DNA of 64,000 nucleotides from Picosynechococcus sp. PCC 7003 (GTDB lineage: Bacteria; Cyanobacteriota; Cyanobacteriia; Cyanobacteriales; MRBY01): positions 2,746,661-2,810,660 of the forward strand of contig NZ_CP016474.1 of the NCBI RefSeq assembly GCF_001693255.1. Direction: 5' to 3'. Numbering within the stretch: the stretch's first letter is position 1; every line of letters starts with the position of its first letter. This document shows positions 1,247 through 60,990 of the stretch, piece after piece. The notes below the pieces were generated by a model that ran no database searches, was not told the origin of the DNA, and saw nothing but the letters and a program-made list of their open reading frames with translations. A program made the position numbers and the translations under genes.

Positions 1247-1252
1247 TTGAAC
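1247..1252 (+). other. Candidate insertion/TAM motif TTGAAC beside the short tnpB element
   Basis: TTGAAC directly precedes the left end of the 285-bp element. The same hexamer precedes the full-length element at 59456-59461. IS200/IS605 elements insert 3' of a fixed short motif and do not duplicate it, and the same motif serves as TAM for the element's TnpB. Two independent insertions after the same hexamer support this reading. Confidence 0.6.
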
Positions 1253-1300
1253 TTTAGCGCGGCAGTCCCTATCTCTCTTTAGGGTAGGGAAGGATAGCGC

Positions 1301-1325
1301 GGTGATGTAGCAAAGCGGAATCACC
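1301..1325 (+). repeat. Left-end hairpin 2 of short tnpB element (co-varying)
   Basis: GGTGAT and ATCACC enclose a 13-nt loop. The full element has GGCTACT/AGTAGCC at the same place with a loop also 13 nt long (both G.AG..AA.CGGA). Stem bases changed on both sides while pairing was kept, which points to selection on the folded strand. Confidence 0.65.
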
Positions 1326-1380
1326 AACCAGTGTGGAAATAATATGCTATAACAGTAGCCACATTGATCACTTAAAGAGA

Positions 1381-1521
1381 ATCAATGTAGCTCAGGTTAA
1401 TTTAGCCTGGGCAAGGGGTCAGGAACTGGCCTCTTTAGACGCAGAGCTGCCTAGCTCTACCAATTGCGGAAGCATGAGGCAACTAGGAGCGATGAAGCGT
1501 CGGAAACTCCATGCCTCTTAG
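1381..1521 (+). pseudogene. tnpB: tnpB 3' remnant
   Basis: An open frame ending RRKLHAS-stop reproduces the last 47 codons of the intact tnpB in this window, starting at INVAQVNLAWARGQEL (INAAQVNLAWARGQEL in the intact copy). The RuvC-I and RuvC-II segments and the zinc ribbon are missing, so it cannot encode a nuclease. Nucleotide differences are spread along the segment, so the copies have been separate for some time. The stop codon lies inside the right-end hairpin, as in the full copy. Confidence 0.85.
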
Positions 1522-1551
1522 GCTGGAGTAGTTCATTAGGATGTACTCACC

Positions 1552-35753: not shown

Positions 35754-37385
35754 TTACGCTGAGTGGAGTAGGGGCGCAGCGCCCAGTAGCTTTTGGGTAT
35801 AGGGATGCTGGGGATGATTAAAAATGTCGGCGGTCTGGCCTAATTCAACGATTTTGCCTTGGTTCATCACTGCAATGCGATCGCACAAAAATTTCGCCAC
35901 CCACAGATCATGGGTAATGAACAGATAGGTCAAGTTAAACTCCGCTTTTAGGGCTTGCATCAGATCTAAAACCTGGGCCTGGATACTCGCATCCAGCATA
36001 CTGACGGGTTCATCACAGATCACGAGGCGCGGCTCGGTAATCAAAGCCCTGGCAATGCCCACCCGTTGCTGCTGTCCCCCAGACAGTTGCCGGGGATAGC
36101 GGGCGTAATATTCTTCGGCGGGCGTTAAACCAACCTTTTCCAGCATTTGCAAGACCTTTTCTTTGACCGCTGGCCCCGTCGCTAACTGGTGGATGTGGAG
36201 CGGATCGCCGATATTTTCCCCCACGGTCATCAGGGGATTTAAAGAAGCATGGGGATCTTGAAAGATCATCTGGAGGTGCCGCCGTTCCGGTCGCATTTGC
36301 CCCACTGACAATTGGTTTAATTCTTTCCCTTCAAAGATGACTCTGCCCCCGGTGGGTTTAATGAGTTGCAAAATTGTCCGGGAGAGGGTGGATTTACCAC
36401 AGCCGGATTCCCCCACTAAGCCCAGAATTTCCCCTTCATAAATATCAAGGTTGATCCCATCGACGGCACGGATCACCTGGGTTTTTTGGCCTGTGATGAG
36501 CCGTTGGAACAGGTTACTCTCAAGGGTGTAATGTTGCTCTAGGTTTTCCAGGGAGAGGATCGGTTGCTTTTCTGGATTTAGGGAAATTGCTTGTTCACTG
36601 TGGAGGTGGAGGGCTGCTTCCAGGAGGGATTGGGTGTAGGGATGCTGGGGATCATTAAAGATTTGCTTGACGGGGCCAGTTTCGACGATTTGACCTTGGT
36701 GCATGACAGCGATGTCGGTGCAATATTCGGCGACCATGGCGAGGTCGTGGGAAATGAGCAACAATCCCATCTCCCGCTCGGCGCAGAGGCGGGTCAGTTC
36801 CTGGAGGATTTCGTTGGCGACGGTGACATCCAGGCTGGTAGTCGGTTCGTCGGCGATGATGAATTTGGGATCCAGTAACAGGGCAAGGGCGATCGCCACC
36901 CGTTGACGCATACCCCCGCTAAATTCGTGGGGATATTGATGCCAGCGGTTTTCGGGGATCCGGACAGCGGCGAGGGTTTCCAGGGCTTTTTGTTTCGCGG
37001 CGGGACGGCTGAGGTCGGGGCGATGGCACCGGAGGGTTTCCAGGCAATGGTTGCCGATGGTCATCAGGGGATCAAGCCTGGTCATCGGGTCTTGGAAAAT
37101 CAGTCCCACCACTTCGCCTCGGTAATGGCGCAGGGCTTCACCCGTTAAATTAAGGATTGGTTTGGCTTGGAAAGTAGCATTGCCAGTCACCTGGGAACCC
37201 CGCGGCAGCAGTTGCAGCAGAGCGCGGCCAATGGTGGATTTCCCGCAGCCAGATTCTCCCACGAGGCCGAGGCGATCGCCTTGATTCACCTGAAAAGACA
37301 CCCCAGCAACGGCCCACTGTAAAGCTTGACCCTGGGCGGGATAGGCGATGTGCAGATCTTGAACCTGAAGCAAAGGAGGGGTCAT
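35754..37385 (-). CDS. Double ABC ATPase of the peptide/nickel importer family (DppD-DppF fusion)
   Basis: 543 residues from ATG 37385; 34 further in-frame codons upstream lack family character. Two complete ATPase units are present: P-loops LVGESGCGKSTIGRALLQ and LVGESGCGKSTLSRTILQ, signatures FSGGMRQRVAIALAL and LSGGQQQRVGIARAL, and Walker B FIIADEPTTSLD and LVICDEPVSMLD. Each ends with an oligopeptide-transporter C-terminal tail (HPYTQSLLEAA, HPYTQKLLGAA). It powers an importer for peptides or similar solutes. No permease or binding-protein genes are adjacent, so these lie elsewhere. Confidence 0.9.
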   Translation of the reverse strand: MTPPLLQVQDLHIAYPAQGQALQWAVAGVSFQVNQGDRLGLVGESGCGKSTIGRALLQLLPRGSQVTGNATFQAKPILNLTGEALRHYRGEVVGLIFQDPMTRLDPLMTIGNHCLETLRCHRPDLSRPAAKQKALETLAAVRIPENRWHQYPHEFSGGMRQRVAIALALLLDPKFIIADEPTTSLDVTVANEILQELTRLCAEREMGLLLISHDLAMVAEYCTDIAVMHQGQIVETGPVKQIFNDPQHPYTQSLLEAALHLHSEQAISLNPEKQPILSLENLEQHYTLESNLFQRLITGQKTQVIRAVDGINLDIYEGEILGLVGESGCGKSTLSRTILQLIKPTGGRVIFEGKELNQLSVGQMRPERRHLQMIFQDPHASLNPLMTVGENIGDPLHIHQLATGPAVKEKVLQMLEKVGLTPAEEYYARYPRQLSGGQQQRVGIARALITEPRLVICDEPVSMLDASIQAQVLDLMQALKAEFNLTYLFITHDLWVAKFLCDRIAVMNQGKIVELGQTADIFNHPQHPYTQKLLGAAPLLHSA

Positions 37386-52706: not shown

Positions 52707-52746
52707 TTAAAACTGTCGCCGACTGAAAATAAAAATGGCGATCGCC
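52707..52746. repeat. 40-bp direct repeat, left copy (island boundary)
   Basis: It matches 55548-55587 at 38 of 40 positions. Read on the minus strand it encodes AIAIFIFSRRQF and a stop, the exact C-terminus of the ABC permease whose complete gene ends at the right copy. It is therefore a duplicated gene end, not chance similarity. Confidence 0.85.
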
Positions 52747-55547: not shown

Positions 55548-55587
55548 TTAAAATTGTCGCCGACTGAAAATAAAGATGGCGATCGCC
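55548..55587. repeat. 40-bp direct repeat, right copy (3' end of permease gene)
   Basis: Second copy of the repeat at 52707-52746, with two differences. It contains the stop and last 12 codons of the complete ABC permease gene on the minus strand, so this is the native copy. Confidence 0.85.
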
Positions 55588-59283: not shown

Positions 59284-59461
59284 ATGACCATGGAGATTCA
59301 AACCAAGTCAATCATTAACAACTTGACCCAGGCGACAGTAACCTGTGAGGGCTTCTGGGAAAAGGCGATCGCCCCCAATCCAGATTTAGCCATTCAACGG
59401 GCAATGCAACGGCTTTTGGGACAACTCAACCAAGCCTTGGCCTTGGTGGATTATTTTGAAC
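59284..59461 (+). pseudogene. 5' part of a gene interrupted by the tnpB element
   Basis: 59 codons and one base: MTMEIQTKSIINNLTQATVT at the start and LNQALALVDYFE at the end, then the element begins. Joining base 59461 to 60970 gives codon CTG and keeps one frame through to 61445, making a 217-residue protein. The N-terminal part is helical with no family I know. In the present state translation would run into the element and stop after about ten foreign residues. Confidence 0.8.
59456..59461 (+). other. Insertion/TAM motif TTGAAC beside full tnpB element
   Basis: The hexamer lies immediately left of the element, as at the short copy. It is part of the interrupted coding sequence (TTT GAA C). 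Confidence 0.65.
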
Positions 59462-59509
59462 TTGGGCGCGGCAGTCCCTATCCCTCTTTAGGGTAGGGAA
59501 GGATAGCGC

Positions 59510-59536
59510 GGCTACTGAAGAGAAACGGAAGTAGCC
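59510..59536 (+). repeat. Left-end hairpin 2 of full tnpB element
   Basis: GGCTACT and AGTAGCC enclose a 13-nt loop. The stem sequence differs from that of the short copy but pairs equally well. It lies directly behind the stop of the ribbon-helix-helix gene and could also end its transcript. Confidence 0.65.
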
Positions 59537-59539
59537 AAA

Positions 59540-59677
59540 TCAATCAGGCTTAGGCAATCGCCTTATGTACTCTCTGATAATTTGAGCCATGCTGACATCC
59601 TTGTTGGACGCGAACGCCTTGAGTCTTGCCAGATCCTCTGATGTTAGCCTTATTTTTAGTACTTCTGACTTGTTCAT
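59540..59677 (-). CDS. Ribbon-helix-helix (CopG/Arc-type) protein inside the tnpB element
   Basis: 45 residues: MNKSEVLKIRLTSEDLARLK then AFASNKDVSMAQIIREYIRR. A short strand (EVLKIRLT) and two helices with the turn NKDVSMAQIIREYI match the RHH fold of CopG-like repressors. The start is 28 bp from the tnpB start on the other strand, with a 14-bp palindrome overlapping its own start codon. I infer a repressor of tnpB and of itself. It is absent from the 285-bp copy. Confidence 0.75.
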   Translation of the reverse strand: MNKSEVLKIRLTSEDLARLKAFASNKDVSMAQIIREYIRRLPKPD

Positions 59678-59699
59678 TGTGGGCACAATAGACTACAAT
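59670..59699 (+). promoter_or_regulatory. tnpB promoter with palindromic operator
   Basis: TTGTTC (59670-59675) and TACAAT (59694-59699) are spaced 18 bp, a plausible promoter. Between them lies the perfect palindrome ATTGTG-GG-CACAAT (59676-59689). Transcription would start near the tnpB ATG, so the mRNA may be leaderless. A ribbon-helix-helix dimer could bind here. Confidence 0.55.
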
Positions 59700-59705
59700 A
59701 GGAGC

Positions 59706-60953
59706 ATGGTAACACGCCGAATCACTTACAGGCTCTATCCAAGTCGCCAACAGCAAAAAAAGCTGCACTATTGGCGGCGCTTACATTGCAGTTTGTATAA
59801 CGCGGCAATAGCTAATCGCAAAACCCAGTACCAAAAGTTCAATCATTCCGTTGATTACTTTGAGCAGCAAAATAGTTTGCCGGAGTTCAAGCAAGTATGG
59901 CCAGAATTTAAAGAACTGGGTTCCCATGCCCTACAGGCAACGTTAAAGCGAGTGGACTTTGCCTTCAACCGATTTTTTAAGGGATTGGGGGGATATCCAA
60001 AGTTCAAGGCATCTCGGAGATATTCGGGGTGGACATATCCCTGCGGGGCAGGTTGGCAGGTAGAAACAGATGGTCAGCATGGCTTTCTCAAGTTGAGCCA
60101 CTTAGGCAGAATGCAAATGAGAGGGAAAGCTCGCACCTGGGGAAAACCAACAACTTGCACAATTTTCTTCCGCCAGGGCAAGTGGTATGCCTCAATCACC
60201 GTCAAATGTAAGCCGCAGCGGGAAGCTGACGGGGGATCTGTGGGGATTGATTTAGGTTGCAAGGAAGCGATTACCCTTTCTACAGGGGAGCAACTATCAA
60301 AGCCTAGCTTTATCAAAGTCGGTGAAGTTGCCGTAAAGCAAGCATCCAAGCAACTCAGACGAAAGCGTGCACCAAACCGAAATAAGCGAGTTAAAGCATC
60401 GCGGCGGTGGCAAAAAGCGAGACGGCAGGTATCAATGCGGCAACGCAAAATTACCCGTCAGCGCGAAGATTGGCTGCATCAAATCACAAGCGACATAGTC
60501 AGCGGTAATAGCCTGGTTGCAGGTGAGCAGTTAAACGTCAAAAACATGACCCGCAAAGCCAAAAAAGGCAGCAAACGGAAAGCTCAAAAAACAGGGCTTA
60601 ACCGCTCCATTCTCTCGGTTGGCTTCGGCATGATTGGTTCAATGCTGGAATACAAGCTGGCAGAGGCAGGAGGATTTTATGTGGAGTCCCCGACAAGGAC
60701 GCTTAAGCCCTCTCAGCGTTGCGCTAAATGTTGGGAGCTAACGCCAAAGACATTGGCAGACAGGGTACATATTTGCTCAAACCCAAACTGTGGCCACAGG
60801 GAGGATAGAGATATCAATGCAGCTCAGGTTAATTTAGCCTGGGCAAGGGGTCAGGAACTGGCCTCTTCAGTCGCGGAGCCGCCAAGCTCTACCGATTGCG
60901 GAAGCATGAGGCAACTTGGGGTGATGAAACGACGGAAACTCCATGCCTCTTAG
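59706..60953 (+). CDS. tnpB: TnpB, RNA-guided nuclease of IS200/IS605 element
   Basis: 415 residues from ATG 59706 (MVTRRITYRLYPSRQQQKKL); an earlier in-frame ATG would extend it with unrelated residues. RuvC-I Asp182 (GIDLGCKEAI), RuvC-II Glu274 (VAGEQLNVKNM), zinc-ribbon cysteines 339, 342, 357 and 362, and RuvC-III Asp369 (DRDINAAQVNLA) are all present, so it looks active. TnpB relatives cut DNA next to the TAM, guided by an RNA from the right end. The 3' end of the gene overlaps that expected RNA. Confidence 0.95.
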   Translation: MVTRRITYRLYPSRQQQKKLHYWRRLHCSLYNAAIANRKTQYQKFNHSVDYFEQQNSLPEFKQVWPEFKELGSHALQATLKRVDFAFNRFFKGLGGYPKFKASRRYSGWTYPCGAGWQVETDGQHGFLKLSHLGRMQMRGKARTWGKPTTCTIFFRQGKWYASITVKCKPQREADGGSVGIDLGCKEAITLSTGEQLSKPSFIKVGEVAVKQASKQLRRKRAPNRNKRVKASRRWQKARRQVSMRQRKITRQREDWLHQITSDIVSGNSLVAGEQLNVKNMTRKAKKGSKRKAQKTGLNRSILSVGFGMIGSMLEYKLAEAGGFYVESPTRTLKPSQRCAKCWELTPKTLADRVHICSNPNCGHREDRDINAAQVNLAWARGQELASSVAEPPSSTDCGSMRQLGVMKRRKLHAS

Positions 60954-60990
60954 GCTGGAGTAGTTCATTTGGTGCCAGAAAATCAATTGT
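60820..60990 (+). ncRNA. Predicted guide RNA (omega RNA) region of tnpB element
   Basis: In characterised elements the guide RNA spans the tnpB 3' end and right end, with its guide in the flank. Here that means scaffold up to 60969 and guide starting TGGTGCCAGAAAATCAA. This segment is also the part preserved in the 285-bp copy. The 5' boundary is a guess. Confidence 0.5.

What the first reader, a model, noticed from the sequence alone, without database searches (positions are those of the whole stretch)
1301..1325. Left-end hairpin with compensatory changes between the two element copies
Short copy: GGTGAT...ATCACC. Full copy: GGCTACT...AGTAGCC. Both stems pair fully and loops have equal length with shared G.AG..AA.CGGA, although stem bases differ. 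Co-variation is strong evidence that this second structure is used, beyond the usual single hairpin read by TnpA.
Basis: seen in the sequence. Interest (0 to 1): 0.72.

Follow-up and report, generated by a model that had tools for sequence, protein, structure and literature searches.

The report
Second left-end hairpin of cyanobacterial transposon
A small hairpin next to the main hairpin at the left end of a single-strand-DNA transposon changes its letters between copies and species but usually still pairs, which suggests that its shape is kept; such second hairpins were already described in related transposons, and what this one does remains to be tested.

Summary
The short copy has GGTGAT-13 nt-ATCACC at 1301-1325, the full copy GGCTACT-13 nt-AGTAGCC at 59510-59536. 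Both are IS200/IS605-type elements; the hairpin ("LE2") lies directly 3' of the main left-end hairpin ("LE1"). In 32 LE2 sequences with a 13-nt cap, 89.2% of cells pair and the covariation score is 0.824 (shuffled 0.267, slid at most 0.304); the nine pairs rank 1-9 of 351 column pairs. LE2 persists in elements with no recognised gene beside it, and wobbles and folding moderately favour the top strand, so a cis-acting DNA structure is likelier than an mRNA 3' hairpin. Two corrections: second left-end hairpins are already described for IS608, ISDra2 and IS605 (in IS608 dispensable in vitro; PMC5934647); and covariation here is partly made by mutation, since 7 of 110 LE1 regions and one LE2 look as if one arm had been rewritten as the complement of the other. 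LE2 is broken or absent in some tnpA-bearing relatives. Verdict: a real, widespread variant of a known feature; its role is inferred, not shown.

The parts
1247..1252 (+). Left flank TTGAAC, target-site side (the element begins at 1253)
   Evidence: Empty site in sister genome G002: left match runs to 1252, G002 itself reads CCGAAC there; own copies share TGAAC before the left end where one search shows it.
1257..1300 (+). LE1, main left-end hairpin: GCGC/GCGC foot, CCCTA/TAGGG, bulged T, CTCT/AGGG
   Evidence: Read; with LE2 it forms covariance model R1, which matched 82 of 388 genomes. Binding by TnpA is recalled from the family, not tested.
1301..1325 (+). LE2, the finding: GGTGAT - GTAGCAAAGCGGA - ATCACC
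   Evidence: covariation.
1381..1518 (+). Remnant of the 3' end of tnpB (no full gene); region that would carry the omega-RNA in a complete element (inference)
   Evidence: 160-nt match to the full copy at 92% from 1381; tblastn of TnpB residues 369-414.
1506..1529 (+). Right-end hairpin: ACTCCA/TGGAGT, bulged T, GCCT/AGGC, CTT loop
   Evidence: present in L001-L007 with small changes: L005 and L006 have GTCT for GCCT, L003 has ACTCTA and GGGC.
1253..1537 (+). Whole short element; right boundary 1535-1537 not resolved
   Evidence: Empty site in G002.
59466..59509 (+). LE1 of the full copy
59510..59536 (+). LE2 of the full copy: GGCTACT - GAAGAGAAACGGA - AGTAGCC
   Evidence: covariation.
59540..59677 (-). 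Small ribbon-helix-helix protein (45 aa) whose stop codon lies 3 nt from LE2, in the place of tnpA
   Evidence: Translation; Pfam RHH_1, E 0.00029, on its first 43 residues.
59709..60953 (+). tnpB
   Evidence: Pfam OrfB_IS605 and Cas12f1-like_TNB.
60938..60961 (+). Right-end hairpin of the full copy

Best explanation
LE2 is the second hairpin of the transposon's left end, a cis-acting structure formed on the top strand (the strand that carries tnpB) when the element is single-stranded. SHOWN: LE2 sits directly 3' of LE1; its arms change sequence but keep pairing; the 13-nt cap keeps a pattern (G-N-A, 2 bp, purine-N-A, 2 bp, mostly G-R-A); LE2 is kept beside tnpA, beside an RHH gene, or with no recognised gene beside it. 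INFERRED: because shape and not stem sequence is kept, LE2 works as a structure, with the cap as the only candidate for recognition by a protein. The likeliest job is the one proposed for IS608: LE2 locks away the bases just 3' of LE1 so that they cannot pair with DNA next to the target, and it may add a little to TnpA binding. Which of these holds, and whether TnpA touches LE2 at all, is not shown. The compensatory pairs have probably arisen partly by template switching between the arms during replication, and been kept because broken hairpins are disfavoured.
For: Covariation: 89.2% of 288 cells paired, 90 cells with two-sided changes (28.7 shuffled), score 0.824 versus 0.267 +/- 0.027 shuffled and at most 0.304 slid; the nine pairs are ranks 1-9 of 351, also after reduction to 23 distinct arm pairs. 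Place: of 31 distinct tnpA-stop-to-LE1 stretches at places given by the TnpA protein search, which does not look at LE2, 15 have a hairpin there matched by at most 12 of 200 shuffles, where about 2 are expected. Gene-independent: LE2 is intact in all 7 own short copies and, by eye, in 8 of 12 elements whose tnpB match starts 46-126 nt from LE2 with no tnpA hit and no RHH-like frame recognised (L083, L087, L096, L106, L112, L118, L138, L143). Strand: leaving out the outermost column and the broken rows L042 and L165, wobbles are G.T on the top strand 8 times and A.C 0 times; the top strand folds better in 29 of 32 with DNA parameters. No T run follows LE2 on either strand (by eye). Named relatives: Acaryochloris plasmids with TnpA 69% identical have 13-nt-loop hairpins here, GTCGAT/ATCGAC in L211 and TCGAT/ATCGA in L210.
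Against: No binding or transposition data. Two of the five measures do not beat the shuffles (pairs with two-sided change 9 against 7.8; further pair types 22 against 20.9), and the counts are not corrected for descent. The outermost column has 10 top-strand A.C cells and no G.T: nine are flanking C and A of 6-bp stems, one is a true pair loss (L010, three own copies); with it the tally is 8 to 1, and with the broken rows 9 to 2. Four of the 8 wobbles are in loci found only with a model that scores the top strand (L061, L084 was found both ways, L089, L101, L123), and L061 and L089 share a genome. LE2 is absent in L111, L108 and L047, broken in L042, weak in L061 and L165; several tnpA loci with another left-end form (e.g. 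L053, L153, L177, L180, L181, L188, L190, L195, L196) show none that I recognise. Caps vary: 11-, 14- and 15-nt caps, long stems with a TCGAT loop, branched forms, and the Acaryochloris caps break the pattern at their ends, so one fixed recognition motif is unlikely. In IS608 the second hairpin is dispensable in vitro (PMC5934647).
Confidence: 0.6

Rival explanations
1. Mutational maintenance: template switching between the arms of an imperfect palindrome keeps rewriting one arm as the complement of the other, so perfect stems and 'compensatory' changes appear in one step without selection on LE2.
For: 7 of 110 distinct LE1 regions are uninterrupted palindromes with 16-21-bp arms, and in 7 of 7 both arms have the right-arm sequence. 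L082 against L078/L079 differ in LE1 this way with the same LE2; L088 against L065 differ this way in both LE1 and LE2. L007 also has its LE1 apex inverted relative to L001. Monttinen and Loytynoja 2022 (PMC8794818, abstract and outline seen) report that template switching can create and maintain stems.
Against: It does not explain why the cap keeps its pattern while the arms change, why the inner pairs of the cap covary too (0.740 against 0.392), or why the hairpin stays at one place although the TnpA proteins are mostly 47-60% identical to the own one. It needs an existing hairpin, which drift would otherwise erase.
Confidence: 0.2
2. LE2 is the 3' hairpin of the minus-strand mRNA (tnpA or RHH), serving as terminator or as protection from exonucleases.
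For: In many tnpA and RHH copies LE2 lies within a few nt of the stop codon or overlaps it.
Against: No T run follows on either strand (by eye); the terminator scans found nothing at LE2, but they allow loops of 3-8 only and so could not have reported a 13-nt loop. LE2 is kept in short copies and in tnpB elements without a recognised gene there; wobbles and folding favour the other strand.
Confidence: 0.12
3. LE2 is an operator for the RHH protein encoded next to it.
For: RHH proteins often bind short inverted repeats (recalled), and the gene abuts LE2.
Against: The arms change sequence between elements, and LE2 is present in elements with tnpA in that place (L024, L034, L062, L067) and in short copies.
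Confidence: 0.03
4. LE2 is a left-over with no role, kept only because it is young or hitch-hikes with LE1.
For: Some tnpA copies lack it (L111, L108, L047).
Against: Covariation across species of several families.
Confidence: 0.05

Closest known systems
Second left-end hairpin of IS608 (positions +46 to +60), also noted for ISDra2 and H. pylori IS605 (Morero et al. 2018, PMC5934647, sections 15 and 16 read)
   Same: Same place, 3' of the main left-end palindrome on the top strand, in the same transposon family.
   Different: Here the stem is 6-7 bp or longer, abuts the LE1 foot, has a patterned purine cap in one large class, and its upkeep is shown by natural covariation; in IS608 the evidence is in vitro and the role minor. 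I did not compare the IS608 sequence itself.
PATE-like short IS605 element of Halanaerobium hydrogeniformans (PMC7290912, passages seen)
   Same: Short element with left end, tail of tnpB and full right end, presumably moved in trans.
   Different: That left end has one potential hairpin; here each of the 7 short copies has LE1 and LE2.
GNA trinucleotide-loop DNA minihairpins (Yoshizawa et al. 1997, as cited in PMC6479982, passages seen)
   Same: The apex of the 13-nt cap is a purine-N-A triloop closed by 2 bp, e.g. GCGAAGC in L062 and L073.
   Different: No structure was determined here; reading the purine internal loop as sheared G.A pairs is recalled from the DNA-structure literature, not tested.

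Membership tests
IS200/IS605 transposon family | Y1 HUH transposase TnpA (PF01797) | tested here: met
   In the C3 copy, 139.2 bits; not in the window's own copies; one further weak hit elsewhere, 22.2 bits (25.7 with its neighbours).
IS200/IS605 transposon family | TnpB accessory gene | tested here: met
   PF01385 and PF07282 in 59709-60950.
IS200/IS605 transposon family | Subterminal imperfect palindromes at both ends | tested here: met
   LE1 and right-end hairpin, each with a bulged T, read.
IS200/IS605 transposon family | No terminal inverted repeats | not tested
   looked only for repeats of 40 nt or more.
IS200/IS605 transposon family | Insertion 3' of a fixed short target without target duplication | tested here: met
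   Empty site in G002 after GAAC, no duplicated flank seen within a 2-nt uncertainty; one site only, and G002 has CGAAC where the own copy has TGAAC.
IS200/IS605 transposon family | TnpA binds and cleaves the single-stranded ends | not testable with these tools
   Needs protein.
Second left-end hairpin as in IS608 | Hairpin 3' of the main left-end palindrome | tested here: met
Second left-end hairpin as in IS608 | Limits extended pairing of left end and target | not testable with these tools
   Biochemical property (PMC5934647).
Intrinsic terminator | Stem followed by a T run | tested here: not met
   By eye, LE2 is followed by AACCAGTGTG or AAATCAATCA on the plus strand and by GCGCTATCC on the minus strand; the scans could not report a 13-nt loop.

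The most novel reading that the evidence does not exclude
LE2 carries a DNA-specific structural code: an outer stem free in sequence, a G-N-A/G-R-A purine internal loop, 1-2 bp and a purine-N-A triloop form a compact single-stranded DNA fold that TnpA or a host single-strand factor recognises by shape. This would be a natural DNA aptamer domain in a mobile element, kept by selection together with arm-to-arm template switching that copies in one direction.
Probability: 0.25. Interest if true: 0.68.

Novelty: new variant of a known kind. Interest (0 to 1): 0.5.

Why it matters
The second left-end hairpin of IS200/IS605 elements has been thought minor because IS608 works without it in vitro. Upkeep of its shape but not its sequence across cyanobacterial families argues that it matters in cells, and gives ready-made natural variants with which to test whether it limits target pairing. 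The arm-rewriting cases suggest, in natural DNA, that covariation in a palindrome can be made by single mutations, a caution for using covariation as proof of function.

Tried and rejected
A terminator or mRNA 3'-end reading was tried and is disfavoured (the scans cannot see 13-nt loops). An RHH-operator reading was rejected because the arms vary and some elements have no RHH. Known RNA family: Rfam at gathering score gives only a tRNA in the window. Named relatives by the search for related loci in genome contigs: 24 stretches matched a pattern, none encoded a relative, so most genomes here are unnamed handles; names come from plasmid and phage records. Outside cyanobacteria I looked at five plasmid records and one H. 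pylori phage record: Acidiphilium has GCGCGC-AAA-GCGCGC beside the tnpA stop; in the other five I would claim nothing.

Rows dropped or chosen: alignment A6 holds 32 windows, 29 chosen by eye as lying beside an LE1 from the 67, plus L043, L046 and L183 added by hand; the broken or weak rows L042, L061 and L165 were kept. In one search, 18 of the 129 loci given had no recognised LE1 foot and were left out (most were read), and some stems picked there by the script are wrong (e.g. L005, L061, L083, L097, L109). Of 86 loci with a tnpA match, 44 gave a distinct stretch with a recognised LE1 (22 of 44 at most 12 of 200 shuffles; 3 with no hairpin); 13 of the 44 had been fetched through the LE1+LE2 model only, so I give the other 31 (15 of 31, 1 with none). 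One search did not list all its matches, and I chose by hand the 80 further stretches fetched from it.

Full report
What is there. The window lies in a 3.35-Mb genome (G000). The closest named TnpA relatives are cyanobacterial; that the host is Picosynechococcus-like is recalled, not from a call. The short copy is a gene-less IS200/IS605-type element at about 1253-1537; the full copy, with tnpB, lies at about 59462-60967. G002, in the same genus, has an empty site for the short copy: its left match stops after GAAC (1252) and its right match resumes within 2 nt of the expected place. The own genome holds 7 short copies, 7 copies with tnpB, and one on contig C3 with tnpA and tnpB. In the window's full copy an RHH gene stands where the C3 copy has tnpA; the left ends of the other tnpB copies read the same as far as one search shows them, but Pfam was run only on the window's copy.

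The observation. The main left-end hairpin LE1 (1257-1300) has the architecture of the right-end hairpin: outer stem, bulged T, 4-bp inner stem, CTTT or CTT loop. LE2 starts at the base after the LE1 foot.

Relatives. TnpA (P0002) matched 50 of 388 genomes of the order (drawn evenly from a larger group) at E <= 1e-40. A covariance model of LE1+LE2 (R1, 7 sequences) matched 82 of 388; LE2 is part of that model, so this count is not independent of LE2. Reading the loci shows LE2 at the inner side of LE1 in many of them. Stems differ: GGTTATT, GACTGTT, GGATGT, GGCGAT, GCGAGAC, GGAGAC, GACAAT, GGCAATC, GGCTGTT and others. Caps fall into types: 13 nt (G-N-A, 2 bp, purine-N-A, 2 bp, mostly G-R-A); 11 nt (one inner bp; L076, L100, L105, L118, L127); 14-15 nt (larger apex; L063, L064, L069, L091); and a second class with long stems and TCGAT in the loop on the top strand (L066, L072, L074, L088, L110, L114, L158). 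Long or branched forms exist (L033, L044, L049, L051, L171). In a test at places given by the TnpA protein search, 15 of 31 distinct stretches between tnpA stop and LE1 have a hairpin that at most 12 of 200 shuffles match (about 2 expected); the other 16 do not reach this, some because the script fixed on a wrong anchor, one (L047) because nothing is there.

Covariation. In alignment A6 (32 sequences, 27 columns, no gaps) 89.2% of 288 cells pair; 90 cells have two-sided changes against 28.7 in shuffles; the score is 0.824 against 0.267 in shuffles and at most 0.304 when slid. The number of pairs with a two-sided change (9 against 7.8) and of further pair types (22 against 20.9) does not exceed the shuffles. 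The two inner pairs of the cap covary on their own (0.740 against 0.392). Mutual information with average-product correction puts the nine pairs at ranks 1-9 of 351, also with 23 distinct arm pairs. None of this corrects for descent. The windows were picked by cap pattern and, by eye, by place; the covariance search that supplied many of the loci did score the stem.

Which strand. Leaving out the outermost column and the broken rows L042 and L165, wobbles are G.T on the top strand 8 times (6 in the outer stem, 2 in the inner) and A.C 0 times; with those rows 9 to 1. The outermost column has 10 A.C cells and no G.T, nine being flanking letters of 6-bp stems and one a true loss (L010). Four of the 8 wobbles are in loci found only by the top-strand model. 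The top strand folds better than the bottom in 29 of 32 with DNA parameters and 31 of 32 with RNA parameters. TnpA of IS608 binds structures of the top strand (PMC5934647, passage seen). This favours the top strand moderately.

Is it tied to a gene? Apparently not. All 7 own short copies have LE2 and no recognised gene beside it. Among 12 loci where a tnpB match begins 46-126 nt from LE2 and there is no tnpA hit nor an RHH-like frame that I recognised, 8 have an intact stem by eye, L127 has one mismatch, and L103, L117 and L131 are unclear. No T run follows LE2 on either strand. The terminator scans found nothing at LE2, but cannot see 13-nt loops; the one site found, 59429-59447, is outside the element.

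Mutation as a maker of covariation. 7 of 110 distinct LE1 regions are uninterrupted palindromes with arms of 16-21 bp (L007, L082, L088, L089, L104, L108, L110), and in 7 of 7 both arms have the right-arm sequence; the C3 copy L024 is nearly so. Pairs of relatives suggest the step: L082 against L078/L079 in LE1, L088 against L065 in LE1 and LE2. In L007 the LE1 apex is also inverted. These are marks of template switching (PMC8794818, abstract and outline; PMC8604942, listing only). So covariation alone overstates the case for selection; the kept cap and the kept place are the better argument.

Known or new. Morero et al. 2018 (PMC5934647, sections 15 and 16 read) report the second left-end hairpin of IS608, say that ISDra2 and IS605 have one, and propose that it limits extended target pairing. 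I found no report of covariation or of a cap pattern for it in the searches made (open-licence PubMed Central only; listings and the passages named). LE2 is therefore filed as a variant of a known feature. Against universal need: L111, L108 and L047 carry tnpA without LE2, L042 has a broken one, several tnpA loci with another left-end form show none, and within one genome (G342) L061 is weak where L089 is paired. Mobility of these copies is unknown; L111's left end has one full-length match at 100% in its genome.

Noticed in passing
LE1 of L007, L082, L088, L089, L104, L108, L110 (and nearly L024): Perfect LE1 palindromes whose two arms both have the right-arm sequence, 7 of 7; the lost left arm may hold the guide sequence, so such copies might be altered in activity.
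   Followed up: partly
59540-59677 (-); also L026, L061, L081, L085, L089, L101, L123: A small protein, RHH_1 by Pfam in the window and RHH-like by eye in the others, is encoded on the minus strand beside LE2 in tnpB elements, in the place of tnpA.
   Followed up: partly
1253-1537 and L002-L007: Seven gene-less short copies keep both left-end hairpins and the 3' tail of tnpB with the right end, where the omega-RNA would lie, so they might supply guide RNAs to TnpB of full copies.
   Followed up: no
L005, L006: Two short copies carry a left end of the full-copy type joined to the short-copy body, as if left-end modules had been exchanged just 3' of LE2.
   Followed up: no
L066, L072, L074, L088, L110, L114, L158: A second LE2 class with long stems and TCGAT in the loop (top strand), often closed by a T-A or C-G pair.
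   Followed up: partly
35763-35825 and 36600-36662: A 63-nt direct repeat at 78% identity, 837 bases apart.
   Followed up: no
52707-52746 and 55548-55587: A 40-nt direct repeat at 95% identity, 2841 bases apart.
   Followed up: no
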